A stretch of 64,000 nucleotides of DNA. It comes from Anaerococcus prevotii DSM 20548 (lineage in GTDB: Bacteria > Bacillota > Clostridia > Tissierellales > Peptoniphilaceae). The position numbers and the translations under genes are program-made. The stretch is from positions 1 to 64,000 of the forward strand of contig NC_013164.1 in the NCBI RefSeq assembly GCF_000024105.1. The letters run 5' to 3'. Below the pieces are notes generated by a model. That model had not been told where the DNA came from. It made no database searches and saw only the letters and a list, made by a program, of their open reading frames with translations. Position 1 is the stretch's first letter. Each line of letters opens with the position of its first letter. Shown here piece after piece: positions 44 through 18,546 of the stretch.

Positions 44-214
44 ATGAATTATTTTAGTAAAATTAAAAATGATAAAAATGGAAGAGGTATTACTCCATTT
101 AATGTTTGCAAACTTATGTGTGTGCACACATGTAGATATAGTTGTACTGCAAAAAATGCAGCAAAACATCCAAGATTTGGACGTAAGAGCTTAAGTAATA
201 AAAATGACAAATAA
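44..214 (+). CDS. CXXX-repeat RiPP precursor peptide (56 aa)
   Basis: This 56-residue peptide is too short for ordinary gene calling but starts with ATG behind a GAGGAG ribosome site at 31-36. Residues 22-34 read CKLMCVHTCRYSC, four cysteines spaced exactly four apart, which is the hallmark of CXXX-repeat targets of radical SAM maturases. A basic tail follows (HPRFGRKSLSNKNDK). The stop codon overlaps the start of the maturase gene by 11 bases, so the two are translationally coupled. By family knowledge the cysteines would be crosslinked as thioethers (sactipeptide or ranthipeptide). The crosslink type is inferred, not visible. Leader and core boundaries are uncertain. Confidence 0.8.
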   Translation: MNYFSKIKNDKNGRGITPFNVCKLMCVHTCRYSCTAKNAAKHPRFGRKSLSNKNDK

Positions 215-2390
215 TACTTCATATAGAGTAGGAAAAGAATTTGATATTTGGAAAGATGGCGTAGCTCAGACATTAACTTTTATTGTAACTGAAGATTGCA
301 ATCTGAGATGTAGTTATTGTTATATTACACATAAATCTTCAAATAAAAAAATGTCATTTGATGTAGCGAAGAAATTTATTGATTATGTACTATCAGAAGA
401 AATGATAAGACCCAAAGGAGTTATATTAGATTTTATAGGTGGAGAGCCACTGCTTGAAATAAAATTAATAGATCAAATATGTGATTACTTTAAACGAAAA
501 GCATATTTACTAAAGGATGAACGGTATTGGGATTATAGGATTAATATAACGACAAATGGGATTAATTATGCTAGTAAAGAGGTACAAGATTTTATAAAGA
601 AAAATCAAGGAAAACTTGAAATTGCAATTACGTTAGATGGGACAAAAGAAAAACATGATATGCACAGAGTTTTCCAAAATGGGAAAGGTTCCTATGATGA
701 AATAATAAAGAACATAGAACTGTACAAAAATCAATTTCAAGCATCTACCAAAGTTACTTTTTCAAGTAAAGATTTAAAATATTTAAAAGATAGCATAATT
801 CATTTATGGGAATTAGGAATATCTGATGTAGCAGCAAATGTTGTATTTGAAGAGGTTTGGCAAGATGGAGATGATAAAATTTTTGAAGACCAGTTAATTG
901 AATTGGCAGACTATATTCTGGAAAATAAGCTATTTGATAAATATTCTTGTACTTTGTTTGATGAATCTGTAGGTTTTCCAAATAGTAAAGAAATATTAGA
1001 AACAGCTTCATGTGGTGCTGGGAAGATGATAGCAGTTGGTCCTGATGGATCATTGTATCCATGTATGAGATATAAAGATTATTCACTTAACAATAAAAAA
1101 GAAGTTGTAATAGGTGATGTAAAGAATGGTATAGATTTTGATAAAATAAGACCTTATTATCTATTAAATACGAAGCTTCAATCTGATGAGGAGTGTCTTA
1201 ACTGCAGGATTGCAAGCGGATGCACTTCATGTTTTGGTCATAATTATGATTCTGCAGATAGTAACACAAATTTTCAAAAGGCAAAGTATATTTGTAAAAT
1301 GCATAAAGCAAGAGTAAGAGCAAATAACTACTACTTTGCAGAACTACATAATAGGTATGGAATTGAAAGAGAGATTAATAACGAAGAAAGAGATAAACTG
1401 TATTTTTTGTTGTCTAATTCGACTGTAAAAACTTGTGCTAGTAGTGAAAATAGAAGTGATTCTTCTATTATGTCTAATGAAACTATAAAACAAGGGTTAG
1501 AATATGCTAAAAATAATTTTCTAAGACCAGTATTCATACATAGTAATTATGGACTCAATTTAAATTTCAAAGAGATAGACTTAAAAGGATATAATATTTT
1601 TCACTATTGCTCAATAAGAAATCAAGATAGTATAAGAAAAATAACTAATAACTATATCCTTACTATTGAATATCCTGATGATGAAGAGTTTATAAGAAAT
1701 ATGAAATTAGAAGAAAATATAATACTAAATATATCGTCTAAATGTTTAAGTGATATGGAGACTTTTATAACAAAATTATTCAATAAGACTAACAGGATTA
1801 ATCTAAATATATTAGATTTCGATAAACAATTTGATTTTATCCTATATGAAAAACAACTAAAGAGTATTTCTGATTATATTTATTATGAGTATGTGAATAA
1901 AGGAATAATTAAAGAACTAAATGTAATAACTGATGAATTGTTTATGAAAGAAAAAGAATTATGTGATAGTGGATTAAATTCTTATACCCTTGCAAGTAAC
2001 GAAAAGTTTTATGTTTGTCCAGAATTTTATTTTAAGTTTCCTTTGGATTATATAGGAAGCTTAGAAGATGGAATAAAAGAGAATTATAATAGACATTTAT
2101 TCACTGAGGAATATTCTCCACTTTGTAATAAATGTAGTATTTGTCATTGTAATTCTTGTAGTTTCGAAAATTATATAAATACAAATGAAGTTAATATACC
2201 GTCTAAAAACTCATGTGTAAAATCTAGTATTGAATATAGAGTATCTTATGAATTACAGAAAAAACTGGCGAAATTAATGGAGTTTGATAGACATATAAAA
2301 CCATTAAATTATTTAGATCCATTTATTGATGTTTTAGAAAAAAATCCTGTAAATGGAATTTTAAACAAAAAATACTTGGAGGATAGCTAA
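204..2390 (+). CDS. radical SAM/SPASM maturase for CXXX-repeat peptide, two-part protein
   Basis: This 728-residue enzyme should install thioether crosslinks in the upstream precursor. The radical SAM cluster ligands are C32-x3-C36-x2-C39 (EDCNLRCSYCY). A SPASM-like domain follows at about residues 269-366 (CGAG, YPCMRY, CLNCRIASGCTSC, YICKMH). The second half, about 400-728, has its own cysteine-rich end (FYVCPEF, then LCNKCSICHCNSC near 640-652). That half resembles the separate 'CXXX repeat peptide maturase' protein of other systems, so this looks like a fusion of two normally distinct proteins (from memory of the families). The start overlaps the precursor stop. The following gene encodes a CXXX-system accessory protein, which supports the assignment. 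Confidence 0.8.
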   Translation: MTNNTSYRVGKEFDIWKDGVAQTLTFIVTEDCNLRCSYCYITHKSSNKKMSFDVAKKFIDYVLSEEMIRPKGVILDFIGGEPLLEIKLIDQICDYFKRKAYLLKDERYWDYRINITTNGINYASKEVQDFIKKNQGKLEIAITLDGTKEKHDMHRVFQNGKGSYDEIIKNIELYKNQFQASTKVTFSSKDLKYLKDSIIHLWELGISDVAANVVFEEVWQDGDDKIFEDQLIELADYILENKLFDKYSCTLFDESVGFPNSKEILETASCGAGKMIAVGPDGSLYPCMRYKDYSLNNKKEVVIGDVKNGIDFDKIRPYYLLNTKLQSDEECLNCRIASGCTSCFGHNYDSADSNTNFQKAKYICKMHKARVRANNYYFAELHNRYGIEREINNEERDKLYFLLSNSTVKTCASSENRSDSSIMSNETIKQGLEYAKNNFLRPVFIHSNYGLNLNFKEIDLKGYNIFHYCSIRNQDSIRKITNNYILTIEYPDDEEFIRNMKLEENIILNISSKCLSDMETFITKLFNKTNRINLNILDFDKQFDFILYEKQLKSISDYIYYEYVNKGIIKELNVITDELFMKEKELCDSGLNSYTLASNEKFYVCPEFYFKFPLDYIGSLEDGIKENYNRHLFTEEYSPLCNKCSICHCNSCSFENYINTNEVNIPSKNSCVKSSIEYRVSYELQKKLAKLMEFDRHIKPLNYLDPFIDVLEKNPVNGILNKKYLEDS

Positions 2391-2391
2391 G

Positions 2392-2657
2392 TTGAAAGAA
2401 GTTGGAACATTAACACAGGAAGAATGTAGTAATATAGAAGAGCTTCTTGAAAAGAAAATAGCATTAGAAAACCTGTTGAAAATTTTATCTGAAAGTCAAG
2501 AAATTTATAAAAAGTAGATAGAGATTATAAAAACATAGTAGAAGAATATGAAAAATGGTGGAGAGATACATCCGATAAATATATTTGGGAAAGTACTGAA
2601 AATTCTTTTTGGTCAATTGATTTTAAATCTAGGAAAGTATATTTAGTAGATGAATAA
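2392..2657 (+). pseudogene. CXXX repeat peptide modification accessory protein, split by a frameshift
   Basis: A TTG start behind GGAGG gives KEVGTLTQEECSNIEELLEK and continues to a TAG at about 2516. The reading resumes in another frame as EEYEKWWRDTSDKYIWES and ends in SRKVYLVDE at 2657. Joined, these match my memory of the small 'CXXX repeat peptide modification system' family (conserved VGxLTxEE start and a WW...WES...W.I.F end). Adding one A to the AAAAA run near 2511 restores one open frame of about 88 residues. The frameshift may be a homopolymer sequencing error, phase variation or true decay; the intact neighbours make decay less likely. The end overlaps the ABC transporter start. 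Confidence 0.65.
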
Positions 2658-4287
2658 TATGTTTGATTGGCGTGAACACAAAAAAATAATTGATAAATTT
2701 ATATTGCCACAGAAAAAGAAAATTATATATTTAATAATAATCATACTATTAGGAATAATTGCAAGTATGGCGATTCCTTATATATTTGGGAAAATTATTG
2801 ATTTAATAGTAATAAAAGATTTGCAATTAGTTTCAAAGTTTATTCTTATAAGTCTATTTTTAAATATATTTCAAAGTTTAAGCGGTATTTTAGAGGAATG
2901 GATAGGCAATATATTATCAGTGGATTGTTCGAACAGTATAAAAGAAGCAATGTTTTCTAAAATATTAGATACAAGATATGAATTTTTAAATTCGTATGGA
3001 GAAGGAGAACTTGTAAGTAGAGTAGAAAATACAGGTGATAAAATAGTCAGTTTCTATATAGATTTTTTTTCAAGCATTATAATGATTTTGTTTAGCATTA
3101 TTATATCTGCCTATATTATGATTAGGATATCATTAAAATTATTTGTAATTGCGATTATATTACTTCCATTGACTTACGGAATTAACTACATATTTAAAAG
3201 TACTATTATTAGTAAACAAAGAGACTATATAGCAAAATTAGATGTATATTCTGATTATCTAATAGATACGATTTCAAACTTAACTGGAATAAAACTAAAT
3301 AATCTGGAAAAAACATTTAAAGAAAATTATAAAGAAAAGCTTCAGGATTTAAAAAATGTATCTATGTCGAATATGAAAATAAATATGACCGTAACGAGTT
3401 TACAAGATTTGATAACTATTATTTTAAGTTCTCTAATATTATTCATTTCAGCAAAATTAATAATATTAGGAAATTTGACATTGGGAAATATAGTTGCTTT
3501 TAGTAGTTATATGGAAAAGTTACATTCGTCAATTAAAAACATTGGTGATTTAAACTTATCTTTTAATGAAGTTATTGTAGATTTAGAAAGATATAGGAAA
3601 ATTATGGATCATGACAGTGAAAAGAAAACTGATGGAAAGAAATTATCAAAAGTAACTAGTCTTAAATTTAAAAATGTTTCGTTCAAATATGATGATGAAT
3701 ACATATTGAAAAATTTTTCATTTGAAATATCGAAGCCTGGATTATACGGAATAGTTGGAGAAAACGGATCAGGTAAAACAACAATTTTTAATCTAATTAG
3801 TAAACTTTATACCGATTATGAAGGTGAAATCTTAATAAATGACATCGAAATAAGTGATATTAAAGATGAAGATTTAAGAAAAGAAGTCTTGTCTATAGAG
3901 AGTAAACCATTTATATTACGTGAAAACCTAAATTCTAATATTACATTATTAGAGAAAAATAAGGTAGATGAACCAAATTTAGAAAAAATAATTAGATTTC
4001 TAGGATTAGAAAGAATTAAAAATTATAGTACTAAAAATTTGAAAGATACTTTGTCAAAAGGAGAACAAGAAAAAATACAGTTAGCGCGACTGTTGATTAG
4101 CAAAAAATCTTTGATTTTATTAGATGAAGTTTTATCTGGATTAGATAAAGAAATGAAGGAAAAAGTAATTTCTAAAATAAAAGAAAGAAGTAAGAATAGT
4201 ATCCTAATAATAATTTCACATGAACATGAAATACAAAGAATATGTGATGATATATTTTTAGTGGCAGGTAAAAAAGAAAATTATTAA
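2650..4287 (+). CDS. ABC transporter, permease fused to ATPase (RiPP exporter)
   Basis: This 545-residue half-transporter has about five or six hydrophobic segments in residues 20-300, then a nucleotide-binding domain. Walker A is GENGSGKTT near residue 371, the signature is LSKGEQ near 468, and Walker B is LILLDEV, followed by an H-loop (IIISHEHE). There is no N-terminal peptidase C39 domain, so it is unlikely to cleave a leader itself. It directly follows the CXXX peptide genes (start overlapping the accessory gene) and probably exports that peptide. With the similar protein at 7250 it could instead form a heterodimer. An alternative start lies nine bases downstream. Confidence 0.85.
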   Translation: MNNMFDWREHKKIIDKFILPQKKKIIYLIIIILLGIIASMAIPYIFGKIIDLIVIKDLQLVSKFILISLFLNIFQSLSGILEEWIGNILSVDCSNSIKEAMFSKILDTRYEFLNSYGEGELVSRVENTGDKIVSFYIDFFSSIIMILFSIIISAYIMIRISLKLFVIAIILLPLTYGINYIFKSTIISKQRDYIAKLDVYSDYLIDTISNLTGIKLNNLEKTFKENYKEKLQDLKNVSMSNMKINMTVTSLQDLITIILSSLILFISAKLIILGNLTLGNIVAFSSYMEKLHSSIKNIGDLNLSFNEVIVDLERYRKIMDHDSEKKTDGKKLSKVTSLKFKNVSFKYDDEYILKNFSFEISKPGLYGIVGENGSGKTTIFNLISKLYTDYEGEILINDIEISDIKDEDLRKEVLSIESKPFILRENLNSNITLLEKNKVDEPNLEKIIRFLGLERIKNYSTKNLKDTLSKGEQEKIQLARLLISKKSLILLDEVLSGLDKEMKEKVISKIKERSKNSILIIISHEHEIQRICDDIFLVAGKKENY

Positions 4288-4334
4288 AAATTATGTTTTT
4301 AGGAAGTTTATGAATATAAAAAAGTAAAAATATG

Positions 4335-4410
4335 CACAAAAGTTAGCTGAAATAAACTTCTAACTGGTCTAAAATTAAATTATAAGAAAAGTAGTATGAA
4401 TGTTGTAGAT
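4335..4410 (+). promoter_or_regulatory. upstream element shared with 11071-11145, GTTAG/CTAAC dyad
   Basis: The segment beginning CACAAAAGTTAGCTGAAA recurs at 11071 with about 43 of the first 48 bases identical, then a looser match for another 25 bases. It contains the dyad AGTTAG-(13 bases)-CTAACT. Here it stands before the lanthipeptide synthetase genes. The second copy stands before the phospholipase/RiPP operon. A shared operator or 5' leader structure is inferred. Confidence 0.45.
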
Positions 4411-4426
4411 ATAGAGTATAAATGTT

Positions 4427-4630
4427 GTGATATTTCAGAAGTTCTACATTAGAATATTTGGAGAAGCTATTTTTATATATACACAAAACAGAACAATAAA
4501 AGAATTACTTAATATACATTTTAAATATTATATATTTAATTTTATACTGATAATAATAGCATTATTTACATATCTTATATTAAAAAAAGAAAAAATATGT
4601 AGTTATATAAATTTATTTTTGGAGGGCTGA
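4427..4630 (+). CDS. small membrane protein of unknown function before LanKC
   Basis: This GTG-started frame of 67 residues has one strong hydrophobic segment (FNFILIIIALFTYLILKK) and ends two bases before the LanKC start. No good ribosome site precedes the GTG. It may be the 3' remnant of a longer membrane protein rather than an intact gene. A second tiny frame at 4396-4452 (18 residues, MNVVDIEYKCCDISEVLH) overlaps its start. I recognise no family. Its position in the operon hints at an accessory or immunity role, but that is speculation. Confidence 0.35.
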   Translation: MIFQKFYIRIFGEAIFIYTQNRTIKELLNIHFKYYIFNFILIIIALFTYLILKKEKICSYINLFLEG

Positions 4631-4631
4631 T

Positions 4632-7214: not shown

Positions 7215-7249
7215 AATTAATAAGTAGTTAATTTTACTAAGGATGAAAT

Positions 7250-8866: not shown

Positions 8867-9059
8867 TGGGACCAAATATAAGAAATTATTCTTAATTAAA
8901 TTTAATTATATATAATACTATGAGAATAATATAGTTATAGGATTAATTGCCAAAGAATCTAAAGCTTTAAAAATTTACTTGTATTATATCTTTATATCTT
9001 AAATTAAGAGTATATAATTTTTTTAGCTTAGATATAAGTTTTATGAAAGGAGGTATGTT
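8867..9059. other. A+T-rich intergenic region before the lanthipeptide precursors
   Basis: No convincing gene lies here. A weak dyad (ATTATTCT/AGAATAAT, about 8885-8931) could be a terminator for the exporter gene. A TATAAT at 9013-9018 may serve a precursor promoter, but its -35 match is poor. A GAAAGGAGG ribosome site at about 9045-9053 serves the TTG start at 9060. Confidence 0.3.
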
Positions 9060-9203
9060 TTGAATAAAATATTATCATTGCAAAAATTAATAGTGGATGA
9101 TTTATTCAATAGTGAAGATAACGATTTATCAACTGTTAGTATATCTTGCAAAAAAGAAAGTACTGTCAGTATATTTATTTGTGTAAGACCACCAAAGGAG
9201 TAA
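9060..9203 (+). CDS. class III lanthipeptide precursor A1 (47 aa)
   Basis: A TTG start behind GAAAGGAGG gives a 47-residue peptide. The leader carries ILSLQKL, matching the LxLQ recognition motif of class III precursors such as LabA. The core holds two ring motifs: S24-x2-S27-x2-C30 and S34-x2-S37-x3-C41, followed by a charged tail VRPPKE. Ser-xx-Ser-x(2-3)-Cys is the pattern that LanKC enzymes convert to labionin or lanthionine. It is the most divergent of the five precursors in the leader, and the only one with a tail after the last cysteine. Confidence 0.85.
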   Translation: MNKILSLQKLIVDDLFNSEDNDLSTVSISCKKESTVSIFICVRPPKE

Positions 9204-9217
9204 TAGGAGGTTATATT

Positions 9218-9355
9218 TTGAGAAATTTATTAATAAAGAGCATACTAAAATTACAAGAGATTGAAGTATATGATGATGTACATGTACAACCAAATTCAAC
9301 ATTGAGTGTACTTGGCTGTGAAACTCAAAGTACCACAAGCTATTTCTTTTGCTAA
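9218..9355 (+). CDS. class III lanthipeptide precursor A2 (45 aa)
   Basis: A TTG start follows AGGAGG. The 45-residue peptide has ILKLQEI in the leader and a core of S27-x2-S30-x3-C34 and S38-x2-S41-x3-C45, ending at the final cysteine as in labyrinthopeptins. Both rings have the longer spacing, unlike the other four precursors. It lies 14 bases after A1, so the two are probably cotranscribed. A longer frame reading in from 9146 overlaps A1 and is not needed. Confidence 0.82.
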   Translation: MRNLLIKSILKLQEIEVYDDVHVQPNSTLSVLGCETQSTTSYFFC

Positions 9356-9423
9356 TAAGATTAAGAGGCTATTACAGTTAATAAACTGTTATGTAGTGAA
9401 AGAACAAGAAAGGAGGTTTAATT

Positions 9424-9546
9424 ATGACAAATGATATTTTAAATTTACAAAGAATGCAACCCAGAGAAGATATAACAGTAATGGCTGCATCAACTTATAG
9501 TACGAACTGTAAAAACTCAAGCGGCGTAAGTCTATTTATTTGCTAA
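9424..9546 (+). CDS. class III lanthipeptide precursor A3 (40 aa)
   Basis: An ATG start with AAGGAGG gives a 40-residue peptide with leader MTNDILNLQRM (LxLQ motif) and core ASTYSTNCKNSSGVSLFIC. The rings are S23-x2-S26-x2-C29 and S33-x2-S36-x3-C40. It is the first of three near-identical tandem copies. A small hairpin (ACAGTT/AACTGT) lies in the 68-base gap after A2. Confidence 0.88.
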   Translation: MTNDILNLQRMQPREDITVMAASTYSTNCKNSSGVSLFIC

Positions 9547-9610
9547 TATTAGTAAGTATAAATTATTTTCACGTATGATAAAAACGCTATAAAATAAGGA
9601 GATATTAATT

Positions 9611-9733
9611 ATGACAAATGATATTTTAAATTTACAAAAAATGCAACCTAGAGAAGATATAACAGTAATGGCTGCATCAACTTTTAGTACAAACTGTAAA
9701 AACTCAAGCGGCATAAGTCTATTTGTTTGCTAA
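9611..9733 (+). CDS. class III lanthipeptide precursor A4 (40 aa)
   Basis: This is a near copy of A3 with R10K, Y25F, V35I and I39V. Leader motif LNLQ and the ring motifs S23-S26-C29 and S33-S36-C40 are unchanged. All core substitutions are conservative and fall between the ring-forming residues, which suggests selection on the ring scaffold. The start is exactly 187 bases after that of A3. AAGGAG precedes the ATG. Confidence 0.88.
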   Translation: MTNDILNLQKMQPREDITVMAASTFSTNCKNSSGISLFVC

Positions 9734-9797
9734 TATTAGTAAATATAAATTATTTTCACGTATGATAAAAACGTTATAAAATAAGGAGATATTAATT

Positions 9798-9920
9798 ATG
9801 ACAAATGATATTTTAAATTTACAAAAAATGCAACCTAGGGAAGATATAGCAGTAATGGCTGCATCAACTTATAGTACAAACTGTAAAAACTCAAGCGGTG
9901 TAAGCCTTTTTATCTGCTAA
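9798..9920 (+). CDS. class III lanthipeptide precursor A5 (40 aa)
   Basis: This is the third tandem copy, again 187 bases after the previous start. The core is identical to A3 at the protein level (ASTYSTNCKNSSGVSLFIC). The leader differs by R10K and T18A. Two precursors with the same core but separate genes suggest gene dosage rather than new chemistry for this pair. A terminator-like hairpin follows. Confidence 0.88.
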   Translation: MTNDILNLQKMQPREDIAVMAASTYSTNCKNSSGVSLFIC

Positions 9921-9937
9921 TATAGAATATTTTTAAA

Positions 9938-9978
9938 ATTACATATCATTAAATTAGTATTAATATTTGATATGTAAT
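9938..9978 (+). terminator. hairpin after the precursor genes
   Basis: The arms ATTACATATCA and TGATATGTAAT form a perfect 11-bp stem with a 19-base loop. No long U tract follows, so termination or 3' stabilisation are both possible. Confidence 0.5.
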
Positions 9979-10010
9979 CGGATAAATAAAAATGATGGTA
10001 CCTTATGAAC

Positions 10011-10247
10011 TGACCCCTAAAAGTTAGACCAAAAAACTAACTAAAGGAGGTCAGTTTTTTAATGGCAAAATATAGCACAGAATTCAAAATGAAAGTAGTA
10101 AAATAATATTTAGAATCCAGTATCTCATATAAATCTTTATCAGTTAAATATTGCATACCTTCAGAAATCGTAGTAATAAACAGGGTAAATGCATACTAGT
10201 CACAAGGCTATAAAGGACTAAAAGTAAAGAGAAAAAATACACAATAG
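10011..10247 (+). mobile_element. remnant of an IS3-family element, left end and decayed orfA
   Basis: TGACCCCTAAAAGTTAGACC at 10012 looks like a terminal repeat of IS150-like elements. It is followed by AAGGAGG and a frame starting MAKYSTEFKMKVVK, the usual start of an IS3-family OrfA (helix-turn-helix). The frame then has in-frame stops (after VVK and after VNAY) but continues recognisably to about 10247. OrfB and the right end are missing here. Confidence 0.7.
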
Positions 10248-10531
10248 AGAAATGTTATCTATAGCAAATAAGACGTACCAATTACATGAATCAAAAATAT
10301 CATTAAATAATCAAAATATTTAATGGATTGTGGTTATTTTGATTATTCTTATGACTTTAGTAAATGTAATCGTTAAAATAATATTTCTTGTGAAACTTTA
10401 TGAAAACATGATAAAATAATTTTATTGATTGAATTTAACATTTAGAGTACTTAATTTTAGAATACTTAATTTATAATTAATTGCAAAATAATTTTTGAAA
10501 AGGTTACAAGTTTAATTACTTATATCCTATG
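10248..10531. other. non-coding stretch with one hairpin
   Basis: No supported gene. AATAATCAAAAT (about 10305) and TTTTGATTATT (about 10336) form a strong dyad, possibly a terminator. Confidence 0.3.
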
Positions 10532-10862: not shown

Positions 10863-11070
10863 TCAAAATAAGAACAAAAATATCAAGCTAACTAAGATAA
10901 AGACATGCTTAACATGAGATTGAAGTAAAGAGCAATTTCTAAAATAAAAGGCAAAATTTAAAATAGTATTGTAGTAATATTTTTTTATGAACAAGGAATT
11001 CAAAGAATAAGCGACGAAGGATTTTCAATGACTAAAAATTATATAGCAAAGGTAATAATTAAATAATATT

Positions 11071-11145
11071 CACAAAAGTTAGCTGAAATAAATTTCTAAC
11101 TACTATAAAATTAAATTAGAAATAAGGTAGTAAAAGCGTTAGTAG
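11071..11145 (+). promoter_or_regulatory. upstream element shared with 4335-4410
   Basis: This is the second copy of the CACAAAAGTTAGCTGAAA element with AGTTAG/CTAACT arms, sitting 18-90 bases before the phospholipase gene. The rest of the preceding gap (10863-11070) shows no supported gene. Confidence 0.45.
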
Positions 11146-11162
11146 CATAAAGGAGATATGTA

Positions 11163-11732
11163 ATGAAAGAAAAATTTAAAAAAATATTTTTAGGGTTAAT
11201 TTTTGTACTGGCTATTTGTGTACTTATTTTTCCTAATAATAATGTAGCTGCATCCGATGGAGAAAATTTGAGCTATAGTGAAATTGAAAAAATAGGAGAT
11301 GAAGTTAAGGAATACATCATTGTAGATAATGGTAGGTTATATTTTGATTATCAAAATGCACAAAATAATAACGAAAGTCCAGAAGTTATAGAACAAGGCT
11401 TATTGTTAGAATCAATTAGTTCAAATTATGCAGGATTTAATACTGAAGGTTACAGTACACGTTCAATAGGGTTACCAATATGGGGGAACTATTGTGGACC
11501 AGGTTATGGCGGAAAGGATTCAGATGAACCAGTTACTGATGTACTAGATGAAGGTTGTAGAAGACACGATCAATGCTACAAGTGGTCTCCAACTCTTAGA
11601 AAGAATTGTAAATGTAATAAAGACTTAGTAGATTATATTGATGCACATAAAAGCGAAATGTCAGGAACAATGGCTAAAGTTGCTTGGGCAATCAGAACAT
11701 ACTTTAATACAGTAGGTCAAATAGGATGCTAA
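11163..11732 (+). CDS. secreted phospholipase A2-like protein
   Basis: This 189-residue protein begins with a signal peptide (KKIFLGLIFVLAICVLIF, about residues 6-24, cleavage near AAS at 30-32). The C-terminal half carries the phospholipase A2 signature: a calcium-loop-like NYCGPGYGG followed by DEGCRRHDQCY, with the catalytic His-Asp pair and disulfide cysteines, and CKCNK further on. The family hydrolyses the sn-2 ester of phospholipids. The stretch at 33-100 may be a propeptide. It opens a RiPP operon and overlaps the next gene by seven bases. Its role there (membrane-active toxin, helper of the peptide, or unrelated) is unknown. AAGGAG precedes the ATG. Confidence 0.8.
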   Translation: MKEKFKKIFLGLIFVLAICVLIFPNNNVAASDGENLSYSEIEKIGDEVKEYIIVDNGRLYFDYQNAQNNNESPEVIEQGLLLESISSNYAGFNTEGYSTRSIGLPIWGNYCGPGYGGKDSDEPVTDVLDEGCRRHDQCYKWSPTLRKNCKCNKDLVDYIDAHKSEMSGTMAKVAWAIRTYFNTVGQIGC

Positions 11733-11989
11733 AAAATATAGAAAAATACACATTTATACTCGGCATAATAATATTTGTTATTTCATATATTCTTCCTGTA
11801 GATTTATTAAATAAATTTACAGAATTGAAACCTTTAGGTATAAGCACGATTTTTATATGTCCTATACTTGGGATAATTGGCTTGATATCTTCCATAAAAA
11901 GAAAATCTATACTATTTGTTTTTTTGAACTTGCTATTGGTATTATCTTTTCCAATTACTATGTTCATTGGAAATTTACTTTTCAAATAG
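11726..11989 (+). CDS. small membrane protein (possible immunity protein)
   Basis: This 87-residue protein has about three hydrophobic segments (FILGIIIFVISYILPV, TIFICPILGIIGLI, ILFVFLNLLLVLSF). I recognise no family. It overlaps the phospholipase gene by seven bases, so the two are translationally coupled. Small membrane proteins coupled to toxin genes are often immunity proteins; that role is inferred from context only. Confidence 0.6.
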   Translation: MLKNIEKYTFILGIIIFVISYILPVDLLNKFTELKPLGISTIFICPILGIIGLISSIKRKSILFVFLNLLLVLSFPITMFIGNLLFK

Positions 11990-12001
11990 CTGGTATAAAA
12001 A

Positions 12002-12430
12002 GTGAAGAACAGAAAAATAATTAAAAGCATATATGTAGTAGTTATTGTTTTAGCAATATTTAAACTTTTCAAATTAAATATTAGTAACTATGAGCAATTT
12101 TATCAATTATCTAATTATGAAATAGCTTCTAAACAATTAAATAAAATAAATTGGCAAGATATTAAAGGTAAAGACGGAATATATTTATTGACATCTAAAA
12201 ATTGTCCATATTGCTTACGTTATATAAGTAACGGAGTAGGTTTAGTAAAAGAAAATAGAGAACTTAATCTATCTGAAAATATTGTAGACTTAGATATAAA
12301 TGAATATTTTAATAATACCAAACTCAATGAAATTTTAGATGAGTATGGTGTTGATACTATACCTTGTATAGTGGTCATAAAGAATAATGAGATAAGAATA
12401 ATAAATTTTGAAGATATTCAAAATTATTAA
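12002..12430 (+). CDS. membrane-anchored thioredoxin-like protein
   Basis: This 142-residue protein starts with GTG. An N-terminal anchor (IYVVVIVLAIFKLF) is followed by a thioredoxin-type fold with the redox motif NCPYC near residue 67 and a cis-proline loop DTIPCIVVI near 120. It resembles bacteriocin accessory thioredoxins. Outside the membrane it could make or keep disulfides in the phospholipase (at least eight cysteines in the mature part) or act on the cysteine-rich peptide encoded next. Confidence 0.7.
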   Translation: MKNRKIIKSIYVVVIVLAIFKLFKLNISNYEQFYQLSNYEIASKQLNKINWQDIKGKDGIYLLTSKNCPYCLRYISNGVGLVKENRELNLSENIVDLDINEYFNNTKLNEILDEYGVDTIPCIVVIKNNEIRIINFEDIQNY

Positions 12431-12552
12431 ATATAAGTATTTAAATATGAATAATCATAATTAACAAAATTCACATAGTAGGAAATGGGTAGGGGTGGGA
12501 ATCAGTTTAGATATTATATGGAGTCAGGATTAGAACAAGTAGGAGGAAGAGA

Positions 12553-12705
12553 ATGTTTGAAAAGATAAATTTAGGTAACAATGAAAAAATGAACTCATCA
12601 GAAAGTTGGCAACCTTGCATGTGGTGTGACTATCCAGAAGATACGTGTGCTGATTTAGGGTGTATTTTTTGCGATGGAAACAAAGATGATATCATAGGAA
12701 ACTAA
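12553..12705 (+). CDS. five-cysteine radical SAM RiPP precursor (50 aa)
   Basis: This 50-residue peptide has a strong GGAGGAAG ribosome site. The C-terminal half is CMWCDYPEDTCADLGCIFC plus an acidic tail, with cysteines at 22, 25, 32, 37 and 40 and no other cysteine. A radical SAM/SPASM enzyme gene follows 90 bases later, and ABC transporters follow that. This is the usual layout of sactipeptide or ranthipeptide loci. I know no precursor family with this spacing. An overlapping 27-codon frame at 12485-12568 is probably chance. Confidence 0.75.
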   Translation: MFEKINLGNNEKMNSSESWQPCMWCDYPEDTCADLGCIFCDGNKDDIIGN

Positions 12706-12795
12706 GTAACTAAATAGAATTATAGTAAATCTAGCAGTATGTAAATAACATATTCTGGCTCCATATTATATTACTATGTATAGAAGGAGGAATGG

Positions 12796-14139
12796 ATGAT
12801 TACATCAGGTTTTATAAAACTCAAACATAATAACAACAAATACATTTTTGATTATGATAATGTGTCAATAATACGAATTGATGACAAAGTAGAAAAATTT
12901 TTAAATTTAATGCAGAAGTATGAATGGGAAGAATTAGAAAATAAATCATCTATGTATATGACTAAACAGGAATATAGAAAATTAATAGAATCTATGAAAT
13001 CTATGGGTTTTTTAAGAGAAGCAGAATTTGAAGGTAAACAACACTATGATTCTAGCAATAAAATTTCATCGATAACATTGATGCTTATTCAAGGCTGTAA
13101 CTTAGCATGCAAGTATTGTTTTGGTGATGAAGGTAGATATAATCACACTGGATTTATGGATTCAGACACAGCTAAACAATCAATAGATTTTTTAATTGAA
13201 AATACAAATAGTGATAAACTTAATATTATATTTTTTGGTGGAGAACCGTTATTAAGATTTGATCTGATTAAAGAAATAGTAAATTATTGTAAAATCAAAG
13301 AATCAACCAATAAATTAAAATTTTATTTTAGTATGACAACTAATGGTACATTGTTAAATAAAGAAGTAAATGAATTCATCATTGAAAATAAAATTAATAC
13401 AATGATTAGTATAGATGGAGACTTAAACGATAATAGTGATAGGGTTTATCAAAATGGCAATCAAGCATACAATGACATTATAGAAAATACTTTATACTTA
13501 AGAAATAAAGGCTTACTATCGGCTAGAGCTACCATTACTCCTAGAAATTTAGATATGGTTAGAGTTTTTGAGCATTTAAATACCTTGAACTTTAAGAATA
13601 TACCAATATCTGCCGCTGACAATTCTTTAGGAACACTTGAATATAAGAGGTATATTGATGAAAATATAAATCTTATCAATCAATTTAAAGATTATATTAA
13701 AAATGGAGAAATAGATAAAGCTAAGAAAGTAAAAATTCTATTCAGGGCATTAAAGCAAATACATTTTAGCAAAAAACAAAATTACCCTTGTGGTGCTGCT
13801 TTTAACTCAGTGGCTATTGATATTGATGGAAATATATATCCTTGTCATAGGTTTGTATCGTATGATCATTATAATATAGGTAATGTATATTCAAATTGTA
13901 TGCAGACTTCTAATTTCATAAAAAAAATCTTTAATGATAATAGCAAGCTTACTGAATGTAGTAGCTGCTTTGCTAAACATTTCTGTAGGTGTGGCTGCCC
14001 TTACGAAAATTATGAAAACACAGGTATTTTAAATAGACCTTCCAGTAGACAGTGCTATTTAAATAAAGTTATATTTATGAAATTATTATACTTATATATA
14101 GATTTAAGTGATTCTGAGATAAAGGCGTTATTTGAGTAG
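12796..14139 (+). CDS. radical SAM/SPASM peptide maturase
   Basis: This 447-residue enzyme has an N-terminal winged-helix region (about 1-85) like the RiPP recognition element of peptide-modifying radical SAM proteins. The radical SAM cluster site is C101-x3-C105-x2-C108 (GCNLACKYC). A SPASM domain with auxiliary clusters follows (YPCGAAF near 331, YPCHRF, then CSSCFAKHFCRCGC near 388 and QCYLN). The layout matches thioether-forming maturases such as SCIFF and sactipeptide enzymes. The substrate is most likely the five-cysteine peptide at 12553. GGAGG precedes the ATG. Confidence 0.85.
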   Translation: MITSGFIKLKHNNNKYIFDYDNVSIIRIDDKVEKFLNLMQKYEWEELENKSSMYMTKQEYRKLIESMKSMGFLREAEFEGKQHYDSSNKISSITLMLIQGCNLACKYCFGDEGRYNHTGFMDSDTAKQSIDFLIENTNSDKLNIIFFGGEPLLRFDLIKEIVNYCKIKESTNKLKFYFSMTTNGTLLNKEVNEFIIENKINTMISIDGDLNDNSDRVYQNGNQAYNDIIENTLYLRNKGLLSARATITPRNLDMVRVFEHLNTLNFKNIPISAADNSLGTLEYKRYIDENINLINQFKDYIKNGEIDKAKKVKILFRALKQIHFSKKQNYPCGAAFNSVAIDIDGNIYPCHRFVSYDHYNIGNVYSNCMQTSNFIKKIFNDNSKLTECSSCFAKHFCRCGCPYENYENTGILNRPSSRQCYLNKVIFMKLLYLYIDLSDSEIKALFE

Positions 14140-14148
14140 GTGATTAGT

Positions 14149-14823
14149 GTGGAAAAAATAATTAAAATAAAAAATCTTTATAAGAGTTATGGTAAAGGTT
14201 CAGTAAAAAATGAAGTTCTTAAAGATATAGATTTAAATATTAATGAAGGTGAATTTGTTTCTATAATGGGAAAATCTGGATCTGGAAAGTCTACACTTTT
14301 AAATATAATAGCTACTATAGAAAAACCGGATAAAGGTCAGATAGAAATTGATGGAAACAATATAGAGAAACTTAGTTTAAAAAAGGCAAATGACTTTAGA
14401 AGAAAATATTTAGGTTTTATTTTTCAAGATTTTAAATTAATTGAATCTATGAATGTTAAAGAAAATATTGCAGTTCCACTATTATTAAAAAACGAAAAGC
14501 CTAATACTATAAATCAAAAAATAGACAATATCTTAAAAAAATTAAATATAGAATACTTAAAAGATAAAAACTCTTATGAAATATCTGGTGGAGAAAAACA
14601 AAGAGTTGCTTGTGCAAGAGCACTTATAGGTAATCCTAAGATTATACTGGCCGATGAGCCAACGGGGGCTTTAGATTCTAACTCTGCTGAAAATTTGATG
14701 AATCTTATAAAAGATATAAATAAAAAATTTAATACTACAGTGCTTTTAGTTACTCATGATAAAAATGTAGCCGAGTATGGAGATAGAATTATAACAATAA
14801 AAGATGGAGAAATAGAGGGATAA
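14149..14823 (+). CDS. ABC transporter ATPase, BceA/MacB type
   Basis: This ATPase of about 224 residues has GKSGSGKSTL (Walker A), ISGGEKQR (signature) and ILADEPTGALDS (Walker B), the pattern of the LolD/MacB/BceA group. I prefer the GTG at 14149, which has AGGTGA five bases upstream, over the GTG at 14140. The next gene encodes its permease two bases on. BceAB pairs protect cells against antimicrobial peptides, so self-immunity to the RiPP is the likely role. Confidence 0.85.
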   Translation: MEKIIKIKNLYKSYGKGSVKNEVLKDIDLNINEGEFVSIMGKSGSGKSTLLNIIATIEKPDKGQIEIDGNNIEKLSLKKANDFRRKYLGFIFQDFKLIESMNVKENIAVPLLLKNEKPNTINQKIDNILKKLNIEYLKDKNSYEISGGEKQRVACARALIGNPKIILADEPTGALDSNSAENLMNLIKDINKKFNTTVLLVTHDKNVAEYGDRIITIKDGEIEG

Positions 14824-14824
14824 G

Positions 14825-16915
14825 ATGAGAATAAGAATATCTAATTTAAGTCTAAAAGATAAAGTAGATAAATATAAGACTTATTTCATATCAATTATTG
14901 TTTGTGCGACTTTATTTTTTTCATTTCTTTCTATAGCTGATTCTAAAAGTGTGATAATGTCAAATGATTTATATGATTTTTCATATTTTGAAACAATAAT
15001 AAGGTGGTTAATATATATAGCATCAGCAGGGATATTTTTGATATTAAATTTCGTAAATGGAAATATTTATAAAATTAGAATTAAAAGCATATCAGTATTA
15101 AATATTATGGGAGCAAAAAGATCTACCTTGGCTAAAATACTTGCTATGGAGATGCTACCTATTTATTGTATAGGTGTTTTAATTGGAATTTGTGTAGGTC
15201 AAATCACTTCTCAATTTATAAATGCTTTTATAGCAAATGCAATTTTAGAAAAATATTCCATAAATTTAGTATTTTATGCTAGTACCCTTCTTAGAACTAT
15301 TATTTATTTTGCTTTGATATTTCTTATAACAAATCTTTTTAATGCTTTTAAGATAATTAAAAAGAAACCAATAGATTTAATAAATGATGGGAAAAATATT
15401 AATAAAAAGACTGTATCAAAAACTAAGTTAATAATATCAAGCCTCATCTTCATTATCTGCTTAGTATATATATCATATAATATATACACTTATTTTAATT
15501 TAGATAGAGACTTTACAGGTCCAATACCAAATTACGAAAGCAATAAAGTTCAAGCTAGTCTTTTAATAGCGTCTATACTACTTATGTATTCATTTTTCTA
15601 TACTATTATTTATTTTTTAGATAAGAAACGTAAAAATGAAAGCATATATCAAAAAGATAAGCTCCTCGTATCATCTAATATTCAAATGAATATATTTGAA
15701 AATGTTAGGTTATTAGTAACTATAGTTATATTCTTGGTTATTTCTATTTTGGCTTTTTCATTGCCTAGAATCATGTCTACGATTGGGGAAGAGAATTATC
15801 ATAACAGGATGAAAAATGATATATATGTTCTCACTGATTTTTATGTCCTGGACAGTCAAAAAGATGTTATAGAGAATGATTATTCTTTTATTGAAAATTT
15901 AGTAGAAGAGAAGGGGGCAAATTTAGAAGGAAGCGTAGAACTTAAATATTTTTATCCAAGAAAAGAAGATTTTAAACCTTATAGTAAGAAGAATAATAGA
16001 TATGATGAATCTCGTTTAGCTATATCTTTAAGTCAATACAATGAATTAAGGAAAATGCAAAACTTAGATGAAATAGAACTTAAAGACAATGAATTTGCCT
16101 ACCAATTAGCAAATACTGAAGACATAGACCAGTACAAAGATAACTTGATAAAAAATAGAAAATTAAAATTAGATACAGTAGAGCTAGTTGGTAAAGGACA
16201 AGGACTTGATTATGTTTACACTGAAAATCTAGGAACTTATATTTATGGTGGTATAAACAAGGATTTGTTAATCTTTCCAGATAAAGTAACAGAAAATCTC
16301 GATCTTGCAAAAATTAACTTTGTTGGCAATACTGATGGAGGGTTAGATTATAAAAGTGCAAAAGAATTAGAAAATGAAATAGAAACGACTGTTAATAAAC
16401 AGTTTACAAATTTGGAAGATAAATATAAAGATGAGTTAGAAAAAGAAAATTCAGAAGGATTTTTACAAGTTATTAGGCTTGATGAAATAGAAAAAGTGGA
16501 CACTAAATTTATGTCACTTTTGACTTTAGTATTGGGAACATATATTGGATTTATATTTACAATCATTGTAATGACAATTCTATTAATACAGTCCCTGATA
16601 AATACCAAAAACTCACTAGAAAACTATAAAATGTTAGAAATTCTTGGTTTAGATAAGAATAGGGTTTTAAGTATAAATAACAAAATCACACGCTCTTTCT
16701 CAATGATACCACTTATTATTTCTATTTTTATAATAGTATCTATACTAATATCTATCTACATTCGATTTAAAAATAGGATTAAGCTTTTTATTGGATTAGA
16801 TAACTATATTTACTCGCTTTTAATAAGTATTTGTCTTGTATTAGTTTTCATAGTTCTATATATTTTTATTATAATTAGAGAAAATAAGAAGCTAGTAAAT
16901 CAAAAAATGAGATAA
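14825..16915 (+). CDS. FtsX-type permease, BceB-like
   Basis: This 696-residue permease has about ten hydrophobic segments. A large soluble loop of roughly 230 residues (about 320-550) lies between the seventh and eighth. That layout and length are typical of BceB, whose extracellular loop senses lipid-II-binding peptides. No BceRS two-component genes are in the window, so any sensing would need to act through another regulator or be purely protective. It is cotranscribed with the ATPase gene. Confidence 0.82.
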   Translation: MRIRISNLSLKDKVDKYKTYFISIIVCATLFFSFLSIADSKSVIMSNDLYDFSYFETIIRWLIYIASAGIFLILNFVNGNIYKIRIKSISVLNIMGAKRSTLAKILAMEMLPIYCIGVLIGICVGQITSQFINAFIANAILEKYSINLVFYASTLLRTIIYFALIFLITNLFNAFKIIKKKPIDLINDGKNINKKTVSKTKLIISSLIFIICLVYISYNIYTYFNLDRDFTGPIPNYESNKVQASLLIASILLMYSFFYTIIYFLDKKRKNESIYQKDKLLVSSNIQMNIFENVRLLVTIVIFLVISILAFSLPRIMSTIGEENYHNRMKNDIYVLTDFYVLDSQKDVIENDYSFIENLVEEKGANLEGSVELKYFYPRKEDFKPYSKKNNRYDESRLAISLSQYNELRKMQNLDEIELKDNEFAYQLANTEDIDQYKDNLIKNRKLKLDTVELVGKGQGLDYVYTENLGTYIYGGINKDLLIFPDKVTENLDLAKINFVGNTDGGLDYKSAKELENEIETTVNKQFTNLEDKYKDELEKENSEGFLQVIRLDEIEKVDTKFMSLLTLVLGTYIGFIFTIIVMTILLIQSLINTKNSLENYKMLEILGLDKNRVLSINNKITRSFSMIPLIISIFIIVSILISIYIRFKNRIKLFIGLDNYIYSLLISICLVLVFIVLYIFIIIRENKKLVNQKMR

Positions 16916-16923
16916 GTAAGGAG

Positions 16924-18546
16924 ATGAATATGTTTATAAAATTCAATGATAAACAAATGAATTTGAAAAGTAGAGAAATAGTTGCCTTAATTGTCTCTAC
17001 TTGCATATTCATCTTATCTAATATTTTAGCAATATATGTTCCTAGCATTTTAGGTAAAATTATAGACATAATTACATCAACCAATAAATCTAATAGTGTA
17101 AGAGACTATGTATTTATATTTGCTATAATTTCTTTGCTAATAATATTATTACAATATATATCTTCAAAAATATTAAATGAATTAAATAAGAAGATTAATA
17201 TTAGAATGTGTACATATGTGTTTAGCAAAATAAGAAAAATGAATCTTATATATTGGTTTAAAGAATCTAAAGGCGAAATCATAACAATTATTAGTAATGA
17301 TATATATAATATTACTGATTTCATAACAAATTCTATACCTAACTTATTTAGTTTAATAATATCAACTATACTGATTTTTATATACATAATGAGATCTAGT
17401 TTGTGGATAGCATTTATAATTTTTTTACTAAATATTGTATTGGTAGTAATACAATATATGATGTCTAGAGTCGTTAAAATCAAATCTAGAGATGTAAGAA
17501 ATTTAAATGCAGAAGTAAATTCAAAAGTACAAGCTTGTATAAATAATGTAGAAAATTTACTTCTTAAAGATTATTTGAAAAGCTCTAGCGAAAATTATAA
17601 TAGAAGTAATAAAAAGTTATTCATTGCAAATAACAATTTAATGGATTTGATTTTAAGATCGTCTACTTTAAATCTTTTGGCAAGTTTGTGTAGTATTTTT
17701 ATTATTATAGCGATTGGGGGACACTTAGCAAATACTGGAAATATTTCGACTGGAAGACTAGTAACTTTAATTTTATACTCTCAAAAGATTTTTTCACCTA
17801 TAACTAACATAACAAAAATACTTATGAAATTTAATACGATTTTACCAAAGAAAACAAAAATAGATCAATTATTAGATAATCAAGATATGATTGAAGATTT
17901 TACTAACTTTGACCAATTATTGGAGCATAAATTAAACTTTAAAACAATTATTGCTAATGATTTAGAGACCGGATATTTAGATGATAATATTAAAATAGAG
18001 AATTTAAGTATCGATTTTACAAAAAGTAATGTCATTGGTATTATAGGTGATAACGGAGTTGGTAAAACCACTATTATAAAGTTAATAAGAAAGCTTTTAC
18101 CTATAAAAAAAGGAAAAATAAAAATAGATAATACTCCACTTGAAGATATTGGTATTGGTGAATTAAGTCGAAATATCCAAATTATGCCTCAGACTGATTC
18201 TTTAAATCAATACGATATTAAATATATAAAATCCAAGTTACAAGAACATTATTTAAATGTAGATATAGAGATGTTTATAGGTGATATTTCAAAAATTTTT
18301 AAATCGTCAGATAAGTATGAATATAATATAAATTCAAAAGGAGAATTGCAAAAATTGTCATTTTTAAATACAATTTTTAAAGATGCAAAACTATATATTT
18401 TAGATGAGCCTTCAGCATCCATTGATTTAAAAAGTGAAAAGTATATGTCTAAGATTATTAAAGCATTATCTAAAGATAAAAAATTTATCATTATTACACA
18501 TAGACCAGAGTTGTTAAATATATGTGATTATATAATTAACTTGTGA
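16924..18546 (+). CDS. ABC transporter, permease fused to ATPase (RiPP exporter)
   Basis: This 540-residue half-transporter has hydrophobic segments across about 15-300 and an ATPase domain with GDNGVGKTT (near 378), NSKGELQKLS in place of the LSGGQ signature, and LYILDEPSASIDLKS. The signature is degenerate, which could reduce ATPase activity or indicate a heteromeric partner. It lies nine bases after the BceB-like gene with GGAG before the ATG. It probably exports the modified peptide. Confidence 0.82.
   Translation: MNMFIKFNDKQMNLKSREIVALIVSTCIFILSNILAIYVPSILGKIIDIITSTNKSNSVRDYVFIFAIISLLIILLQYISSKILNELNKKINIRMCTYVFSKIRKMNLIYWFKESKGEIITIISNDIYNITDFITNSIPNLFSLIISTILIFIYIMRSSLWIAFIIFLLNIVLVVIQYMMSRVVKIKSRDVRNLNAEVNSKVQACINNVENLLLKDYLKSSSENYNRSNKKLFIANNNLMDLILRSSTLNLLASLCSIFIIIAIGGHLANTGNISTGRLVTLILYSQKIFSPITNITKILMKFNTILPKKTKIDQLLDNQDMIEDFTNFDQLLEHKLNFKTIIANDLETGYLDDNIKIENLSIDFTKSNVIGIIGDNGVGKTTIIKLIRKLLPIKKGKIKIDNTPLEDIGIGELSRNIQIMPQTDSLNQYDIKYIKSKLQEHYLNVDIEMFIGDISKIFKSSDKYEYNINSKGELQKLSFLNTIFKDAKLYILDEPSASIDLKSEKYMSKIIKALSKDKKFIIITHRPELLNICDYIINL

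What the first reader, a model, noticed from the sequence alone, without database searches (positions are those of the whole stretch)
9060..9920. Five-member class III lanthipeptide precursor family with double labionin-type motifs
Five consecutive small genes each carry an LxLQ leader motif and two Ser-xx-Ser-x(2,3)-Cys motifs, next to a LanKC synthetase lacking zinc ligands. Four of five have one short ring (SxxSxxC) and one long ring (SxxSxxxC), while A2 has two long rings. Class III lanthipeptides are mostly described from Actinobacteria and aerobic Firmicutes; five precursors in one low-GC mobile island seems unusual.
Basis: partly seen in the sequence, partly recalled or inferred. Interest (0 to 1): 0.85.

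Follow-up and report, generated by a model that had tools for sequence, protein, structure and literature searches.

The report
Swappable lanthipeptide cassette with five precursors
A plasmid of an oxygen-avoiding human-associated bacterium carries five genes for small ring-bearing peptides of a known class, and they appear to be one exchangeable cassette among several peptide-making cassettes that share the same on-switch.

Summary
Five consecutive ORFs (9060-9920) are class III lanthipeptide precursors: all exceed the NF038159 cut-off and are the only such hits in the 2-Mb genome. LanKC (4632-7214) has lyase, kinase and cyclase domains and no zinc ligands. The 'island' is a 115,566-bp contig, very probably plasmid pAPRE01 of Anaerococcus prevotii PC1T.

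As a rarity the finding fails: arrays of 6-8 precursors with a short then a long ring motif occur in other Bacillota, some on plasmids; anaerobes have smaller ones.

The setting is unusual. lanKC, its exporter and the precursors fill a ~6.5-kb stretch that a congener lacks, between two radical-SAM RiPP operons. A 22-nt element, exact at three places in the genome, precedes these three operons; its 15-nt core also precedes an adjacent two-component system. In relatives the same slot holds other cassettes behind the element. The 15-mer occurs in 29 of 130 family genomes (reversed control: 0). I infer a two-component-controlled RiPP regulon with exchangeable cassettes. Against: two other radical-SAM systems on the plasmid lack the element, and no expression data exist here. 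Ring chemistry, leader protease and activity are untested.

The parts
4335..4356 (+). 22-nt element CACAAAAGTTAGCTGAAATAAA in front of the lanthipeptide cassette; proposed regulator-dependent promoter, -10-like hexamer TAAAAT at +35
   Evidence: exact match; 0 expected by chance in the window; 3 exact copies plus one with 3 mismatches in 2 Mb, reversed control 0; -10 position
4427..4630 (+). 67-aa ORF (GTG) between element and lanKC; hypothetical, may be non-coding
   Evidence: no Pfam match; no match among ORFs of L022-L108
4632..7214 (+). lanKC, class III lanthionine synthetase, 860 aa
   Evidence: NF038151 741.7 bits over cut-off 575; RamC_N + Pkinase + LANC_like; PDB 8sap/8sao 554 bits
7250..8866 (+). 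ABC exporter (ABC2), 538 aa; proposed lanthipeptide exporter
   Evidence: Pfam ABC_membrane + ABC_tran, no peptidase domain; strong relatives in some LanKC loci: L052 238 bits, L046 228, L075 172, L060 165 (only LanKC loci were compared)
9060..9203 (+). precursor A1, 47 aa, alpha-like (short+long motif, 6-residue C-terminal tail)
   Evidence: NF038159 47.7 bits; best core matches are precursors upstream of LanKC in L044 and L025
9218..9355 (+). precursor A2, 45 aa, two long motifs; weakly beta-like
   Evidence: NF038159 46.3 bits (from 9221); best core match L025:9555, score ratio 0.54; start
9424..9546 (+). precursor A3, 40 aa, gamma-like
   Evidence: NF038159 54.1 bits; best core match L038:11852
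9611..9733 (+). precursor A4, 40 aa, gamma-like
   Evidence: NF038159 57.2 bits
9798..9920 (+). precursor A5, 40 aa, gamma-like
   Evidence: NF038159 54.9 bits
10033..10833 (.). remnants on the right side of the cassette: IS3-type orfA-like remnant (by eye, from about 10062) and a fragment (about 10505-10833) that resembles part of the relaxase-like ORF at 19005
   Evidence: sequence; matches; position
4154..4430 (+). left flanking repeat: 3' end of ABC1 plus element
   Evidence: direct repeats D2 and D3, 74-75% without gaps; 69% over 243 nt
10921..11166 (+). right flanking repeat: decayed copy of ABC1 3' end plus element (11071-11092)
44..214 (+). CXXX-repeat precursor peptide (CKLMCVHTCRYSC), 56 aa, neighbouring RiPP unit
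   Evidence: no NCBIfam match
204..2390 (+). radical SAM CXXX-peptide maturase, 728 aa; constant left neighbour of the slot
   Evidence: TIGR04115 487 bits and TIGR04119 279 bits, both over cut-off; 90-95% identical in 4 congeners
2650..4287 (+). ABC exporter (ABC1), 545 aa; belongs to the CXXX unit, not to the lanthipeptide
   Evidence: behind the CXXX maturase in G023, which lacks LanKC, and in G024, G005, G017, G530, G531
11071..11092 (+). element copy in front of the PLA2-like/PapB operon
11163..18546 (+). next RiPP unit: PLA2-like protein (weak match, below Pfam cut-off), 50-aa Cys-rich peptide (12553-12705), PapB-family ranthipeptide maturase (12796-14139), ABC transporters
   Evidence: NF047865 359 bits over cut-off 340; Pfam

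Best explanation
The five ORFs are the precursor set (one alpha-like, one beta-like, three gamma-like) of a plasmid-borne class III lanthipeptide. LanKC binds the LxLQ leader, phosphorylates and eliminates core serines and forms two labionin- or lanthionine-type rings per peptide. ABC2 exports the product, and an unclustered host protease trims the leader. lanKC, ABC2 and A1-A5 are one exchangeable cassette in a RiPP locus. In front of each unit stands a promoter with the block CACAAAAGTTAGCTG and a -10 box 33-35 nt from its start, probably bound by the response regulator encoded just upstream of the CXXX unit, whose own operon carries the same block. Cassettes appear to enter or leave the slot behind ABC1 by recombination in the repeats at its ends. 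Shown by sequence: precursors, LanKC, a filled and an empty site, the element, other cassettes in relatives. Inferred: regulation, export pairing, exchange mechanism and direction, chemistry, antibacterial role.
For: Family models and domains; five hits only in the genome. Empty site: in same-genus G023, window 13-4396 (90.6%) and 10921-20829 (96.1%) match stretches that adjoin (they overlap by about 200 nt), so 4397-10920 is missing. The element is exact at 4335, 11071 and 115507, with 3 mismatches at 113128 before the two-component genes; no other place in 2 Mb within 3 mismatches; reversed control 0. Genus: 13 of 31 genomes, 36 sites, control 0. By my reading, 29 of 36 precede two-component (7), CXXX (5), PLA2 (4), lanKC (1), other radical SAM or LanM (6, one a remnant) or ABC (6) operons. 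Family: 29 of 130 genomes, 9 of 39 genera, control 0. Best TATAAT-like hexamer at +33 or +35 in 51 of 62 distinct sites, against a mean of 5.9 (largest 13) when the downstream bases are shuffled; 13 of 20 after near-identical sites are collapsed. Of 7 loci with intact CXXX maturase and ABC1, all have the element (one with a mismatch) at the end of ABC1, and 6 have a different RiPP-type cassette behind it. A second LanKC (728 bits) with a 40-aa precursor stands behind the element in G530, another genus. Window, G530 and A. coli LanKC form one clade, 98/99.
Against: No expression, binding or product data. Of the 36 genus sites, 4 lie in a secY-like coding sequence, 2 precede unclear genes and 1 was not fetched. 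At least one family site (L208, the only one of its genus) looks accidental. Two other radical-SAM systems on the same plasmid (C1:100428, 107130) have no element within 3 mismatches. Besides LanKC, the cassette enzymes in the slot of relatives are radical SAM proteins, none of which passes the cut-off of its best model. The presumed kinase has no Pfam match. Sites in relatives share ancestry, so they are not independent. The -10 before LanKC is TAAAAT; LanKC starts 297 nt after the start of the element, with an unexplained 67-aa ORF between. The 190-nt gap before A1 could hold another promoter. A. coli, in the same LanKC clade, has no element within 3 mismatches in its 20.5-kb locus. G023 may have lost the cassette; direction is not known. 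IS and relaxase debris could mean decay.
Confidence: 0.76

Rival explanations
1. An ordinary, self-contained class III lanthipeptide cluster that happens to sit between other RiPP operons. The repeated element is residue of plasmid segment duplication, with no shared control.
For: The flanks of the cassette are homologous (ABC1 3' end plus element, 69-75%), so the element could have been copied passively. LanKC clusters on plasmids without such a locus exist. Two radical-SAM systems of the same plasmid lack the element.
Against: The block is conserved where its surroundings are not, precedes unrelated operons and the two-component genes, keeps a -10 box at a fixed distance (51 of 62 against 5.9 in shuffles) and recurs across genera.
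Confidence: 0.18
2. The rings are simple lanthionines (or a mix), not labionins.
For: Walker 2020 states that Sx2Sx3C gives lanthionine in some class III peptides and labionin in others (PMC7268733, passage).
Against: Andalusicin, made by a Bacillus LanKC, carries a labionin (PMC10604976 and PMC11557216, passages); the solved LanKC that I take to be that enzyme matches this one at 554 bits.
Confidence: 0.35
3. The cluster is decaying and makes nothing.
For: IS3-type and relaxase remnants beside it, near-identical duplicated precursors, a decayed ABC1 end.
Against: LanKC is full length with the conserved K255, D362, N367 and D380. All five precursors keep leader and both motifs.
Confidence: 0.07

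Closest known systems
Class III lanthipeptide clusters of Staphylococcus plasmids, Niallia, Priestia (probably Walker 2020 family III 6, a lead from a passage)
   Same: LanKC, ABC exporter, several double-motif precursors of similar types, plasmid location in four loci read
   Different: There the alpha gene lies upstream of lanKC (17 of 17 upstream genes match upstream genes best), and a PadR/DUF1700/NDxxF group lies near in three plasmid loci; here all five precursors are downstream and LanKC falls in a separate clade
Andalusicin / ThurKC system (Bacillus thuringiensis)
   Same: LanKC without zinc ligands, seven precursors, leader motif LELQL (PMC10604976, passages)
   Different: Andalusicin has one C-terminal labionin, many other dehydrated residues and a methyltransferase; the cores here have two motifs. 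Pfam M16_C finds one chromosomal place in A. prevotii, so paired M16B proteases are not evident
Aedoeadaptatus coli (L033) and unnamed G530 LanKC loci
   Same: nearest LanKC relatives; G530 is of the window's family by the tool's code and stands behind the same element
   Different: one precursor each with two short motifs; A. coli has no element in its locus
blp locus of Streptococcus pneumoniae; plantaricin (pln) regulon
   Same: one regulatory system serving variable bacteriocin modules (blp: PMC4860687, passages; blp regulator details, pln and shared promoter repeats recalled)
   Different: Here the cargo are chemically different RiPP types, the response regulator is of GerE/LuxR type, and a pheromone gene was not searched for
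Sactibiotic-like clusters of A. tetradius and A. prevotii pAPRE01 (Murphy 2011, PMC3132745, passages and sections 18 and 19 read)
   Same: The A. tetradius cluster (two-component genes, 728-aa and 457-aa radical SAM proteins, a further radical SAM protein with CNFSCLHC, methylase, two ABC transporters) matches the G005 locus L148. Its A. prevotii gene Apre_1837 fits the ORF at C1:100428 (CNLRCKYC and GGEPLI present)
   Different: Those two sections mention no LanKC, shared promoter element or cassette exchange

Membership tests
Class III lanthipeptide | trifunctional LanKC: lyase, kinase, LanC-like cyclase | tested here: met
Class III lanthipeptide | cyclase without the three zinc ligands | tested here: met
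   L736, F779, R780 at the positions aligned to ThurKC S726, F770, D771 (numbering offset inferred)
Class III lanthipeptide | precursor leader with LxLQ motif | tested here: met
   five of five
Class III lanthipeptide | S-x-x-S-x(2-5)-C core motif | tested here: met
   two per peptide in five of five; NF038159 over cut-off in five of five
Class III lanthipeptide | dehydrated, thioether- or labionin-ringed product | not testable with these tools
   needs mass spectrometry
alpha/beta/gamma multi-precursor group of Bacillota (my grouping) | precursors fall into the group's subtypes | tested here: inconclusive
   A1 best matches upstream (alpha) genes, A3-A5 gamma genes; A2 only 0.54 to a beta gene and with one extra residue in the first ring
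alpha/beta/gamma multi-precursor group of Bacillota (my grouping) | LanKC inside that group's clade | tested here: not met
   window LanKC groups with A. coli and G530 LanKC, 98/99
two-component-controlled multi-bacteriocin locus (blp/pln kind) | same promoter element before several peptide operons and the regulator | tested here: met
   sequence only:
two-component-controlled multi-bacteriocin locus (blp/pln kind) | variable cargo between relatives | tested here: met
two-component-controlled multi-bacteriocin locus (blp/pln kind) | LytTR-type response regulator (feature recalled) | tested here: not met
   Response_reg + GerE
two-component-controlled multi-bacteriocin locus (blp/pln kind) | peptide pheromone (feature recalled) | not tested
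   no search made

The most novel reading that the evidence does not exclude
Gram-positive anaerobic cocci of this family carry a 'RiPP cassette slot'. One GerE-type two-component system drives a family of promoters with the block CACAAAAGTTAGCTG, and behind these promoters chemically unrelated RiPP pathways (class III and class II lanthipeptides, CXXX peptides, ranthipeptide-type and perhaps epimerised peptides) are swapped in and out by recombination between promoter-bearing repeats. The A. prevotii lanthipeptide is a three-type (alpha, beta, gamma) peptide set that may act together as a multi-component agent.
Probability: 0.48. Interest if true: 0.72.

Novelty: new variant of a known kind. 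Interest (0 to 1): 0.52.

Why it matters
By itself the precursor family adds one member to a known class. The shared element and the slot matter more. They predict, from a 15-nt block, where RiPP operons lie in a little-studied part of the human microbiota, and that one regulator turns on several chemically different peptides at once. They also give a case in which exchange of whole RiPP pathways between species can be read from filled and empty sites. The conserved precursor types (17 of 17 genes upstream of lanKC match upstream genes of other loci best) make it testable whether class III lanthipeptides work as multi-component agents.

Tried and rejected
Rejected: chance motifs; 'five precursors are unusual' (and papers); ABC1 as the lanthipeptide exporter (it belongs to the CXXX unit); the CXXX radical SAM protein as a tailoring enzyme of the lanthipeptide (among ORFs of L022-L108 only one weak 54-bit match, in L035; and it occurs at 90-95% identity in 4 congeners, none of which has a LanKC over cut-off); a phage carrier (no LanKC match in 50,697 phage records). 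Led nowhere: single-protein genome-contig scan; generic sigma-70 scan (67 found against 59.4 in shuffles); leader protease (Pfam M16_C 1 place, S9 4 places, all on the other contig); paper search for 'CXXX repeat' (0 papers). Literature on this cluster: 'Anaerococcus prevotii' + lanthipeptide gave 1 paper, Anaerococcus + lanthipeptide 2 papers. The first, PMC4289311, lists no A. prevotii lanthipeptide in its Table 3 (section 6 read); the second was seen in the listing only. The library holds open-licence papers only.

Limits of counts: the 88 loci are the window, 7 plasmid loci and the best 80 of 388 relatives. The core comparison used 16 hand-picked loci with 66 precursors, including identical tandem copies. 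The LanKC tree used 81 rows (ORFs of 780-950 aa only; L038 and others dropped), that used 37 chosen rows. The 62 promoter sites leave out the four secY-like sites and L186, L188 beforehand. Of 76 family sites, 74 were read; G481:C1 and G017:C1:574326 were not. Of the 39 sites outside the genus that were read, 10 precede two-component genes, 3 CXXX units (one truncated), 1 lanKC; the rest I did not sort in full.

Full report
Identity of the window. The window is bases 1-64000 of contig C1 (115,566 bp) of a two-contig, 1,998,633-bp genome. Anaerococcus prevotii PC1T is reported as 1,998,633 bp, a chromosome plus one circular plasmid, pAPRE01 (PMC3035230, passages). I take C1 to be pAPRE01; an ORF at C1:100428 with the CNLRCKYC and GGEPLI motifs reported for the pAPRE01 gene Apre_1837 agrees. 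The 'mobile island' is therefore a plasmid, with a relaxase-like ORF at 19005-20345 (name by eye).

The precursors. Five ORFs lie head to tail at 9060-9920. All five pass the curated cut-off of NF038159, class III lanthipeptide, and they are the only five matches in the genome; of 391 genomes of the class, drawn evenly, no other passes the cut-off. Sixty simulated windows gave no ORF with the leader and two ring motifs. A3-A5 are tandem copies, 187 nt apart.

The synthetase. LanKC (860 aa) has lyase, kinase and cyclase domains, scores 742 bits to the class III model against 296 to class IV and matches solved class III synthetases over nearly its whole length. The zinc-ligand positions hold Leu, Phe and Arg. 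K255, D362, N367 and D380 are invariant among eight homologues.

How common is this? tblastn of LanKC matches 85 plasmid records, 23 of them over 80% or more of its length, and 388 candidate places in named genomes. Among 88 loci scanned, 32 carry double-motif precursors, 93 in all: short+long 61, long+short 15, long+long 12, short+short 5. Arrays of 6-8 occur in S. simulans, Alkalihalophilus, Priestia and Niallia. So neither number nor ring order is unusual. Published work agrees: class III clusters are abundant in Firmicutes (PMC8960859, passages), and a B. cereus cluster has 13 identical precursors (PMC7268733, passages).

Precursor types. Comparing cores only, genes upstream of lanKC match upstream genes of other loci best (17 of 17). 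Position is shared with the best out-of-locus match in 58 of 61 cases; in 2,000 within-locus shuffles of position the mean is 39.8 and the largest 53. Tandem copies are counted singly there, so the 61 are not independent. At least two precursor types are thus old and kept together. I call the upstream, tailed type alpha, the tandem type gamma and the SLGC type beta (my labels). A1 is alpha-like and A3-A5 gamma-like; A2 is only weakly beta-like.

The empty site. In an unnamed congener (G023) window 13-4396 and 10921-20829 match adjoining stretches at 90.6% and 96.1%; 4397-10920 is missing apart from a 300-nt relaxase-like piece that matches elsewhere. The missing piece holds lanKC, ABC2, A1-A5 and IS/relaxase debris. 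It is flanked by imperfect direct repeats with the 3' end of ABC1 and the element (69-75%). Hence ABC1 belongs to the CXXX unit on its left. Whether A. prevotii gained the piece or G023 lost it cannot be told. Three further congeners have the CXXX unit (90-95% with G023) and other genes in the slot.

The shared element. CACAAAAGTTAGCTGAAATAAA is exact before the CXXX unit (C1:115507), before lanKC (4335) and before the PLA2-like/PapB unit (11071), and has 3 mismatches before the two-component genes (C1:113128). These are the only places in the genome within 3 mismatches; the reversed pattern has none. The 15-nt block is in 13 of 31 genus genomes (36 sites) and 29 of 130 family genomes in 9 of 39 genera, reversed control 0. 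After the 36 genus sites I read: 7 two-component operons, 5 CXXX units, 4 PLA2 units, 1 lanKC, 6 other radical SAM or LanM units (one a truncated remnant), 6 ABC operons. Against the reading, 4 lie in a secY-like frame (by eye, beside ribosomal protein genes), 2 precede unclear genes (one transposase-like, one a 417-aa ORF) and 1 was not fetched. One of the 9 genera has only a site that looks accidental (L208). Two further radical-SAM systems of the plasmid (C1:100428, 107130) have no element. In 51 of 62 distinct sites the best TATAAT-like hexamer starts 33 or 35 nt after the start of the block; with the downstream bases shuffled the mean is 5.9 and the largest 13; after collapsing similar sites it is 13 of 20.

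The slot. Seven loci have an intact CXXX maturase and ABC1 (window, G023, G024, G005, G017, G530, G531). At the end of ABC1 stands a copy of the element in all seven (with one mismatch in the 15-mer in G024). What follows differs each time: lanKC; the PLA2 unit directly (empty slot, G023); ABC plus PqqD-domain protein plus radical SAM (G024); two radical SAM proteins, a methyltransferase-like protein and ABC (G005); a YydG-type protein (239.5 bits, cut-off 300; G017); a RumMC-like protein (466 bits, cut-off 720; G530); paired radical SAM proteins with ABC (G531). None of these radical SAM proteins passes the cut-off of its best model, so their exact chemistry is open. In G530 a class III cassette follows at the next element, with lanKC (728 bits) and one 40-aa precursor. 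In G005 a class II cassette, LanM (993 bits over cut-off 304) with a plantaricin C-family precursor (70 bits over 29), stands behind another copy; G017 has ORFs of the same length and beginning there. Window, G530 and A. coli LanKC form one clade (98/99).

Interpretation. The simplest account is a RiPP locus under one two-component system in which whole pathways are exchanged. The response regulator has Response_reg and GerE domains. Its partner is taken as the kinase from gene order and from the published description of what appears to be the same A. tetradius genes as SalRK-like (PMC3132745, section 18), since Pfam gave no match. In kind this resembles the pneumococcal blp locus (PMC4860687, passages) and, from recall, the plantaricin regulon, but with chemically diverse RiPPs and another regulator family. 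Regulation, export, leader removal and biological role are inferred. No protease is among the cassette's ORFs, and neither exporter shows a peptidase domain in Pfam.

Verdict.

Noticed in passing
window 44-2390 and C1:113340-115464: Complete CXXX-repeat RiPP unit (56-aa peptide with CxxxCxxxCxxxC, fused TIGR04115/TIGR04119 maturase) preceded by a two-component system. TIGR04119 passes its cut-off in 3 of 196 genomes of the class.
   Followed up: partly
window 11163-18546: PapB-type ranthipeptide unit whose operon begins with a phospholipase A2-like protein (weak Pfam match, below cut-off; signal peptide by eye).
   Followed up: partly
C1:100428-101996 and 107130-108491 (outside the window): Two more proteins with the radical SAM cysteine motif beside ABC transporters on the same plasmid; the first fits Murphy 2011's Apre_1837. 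Neither has the element.
   Followed up: partly
window 21601-43109: Looks like a nonribosomal peptide (siderophore-type) cluster with peptide importers and exporters, by eye only.
   Followed up: no
window 53636-54502 and 59820-60440: Two nearly identical AraC-type regulator ORFs, the second shorter; a similar beginning also in L204. Names by eye.
   Followed up: no
L025 (Priestia plasmid) and L022 (S. simulans plasmid): PLSDB lists 3 class III precursors in L025 where the scan finds 7, and 5 in L022 where a sixth double-motif ORF (11947-12102) is called hypothetical: small precursors are under-annotated.
   Followed up: partly
L024:6305-6985: A trypsin-like serine protease directly upstream of lanKC in Streptococcus salivarius; possible leader protease in that lineage.
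   Followed up: no
L180, L181, L182, L187: The 15-nt block also occurs inside a secY-like coding sequence in four congeners, a false positive to allow for in scans.
   Followed up: yes
L003 (G074:C1:1542472-1544282): Two partial LanKC matches side by side in a genome of another family of the order; possibly a broken gene.
   Followed up: no
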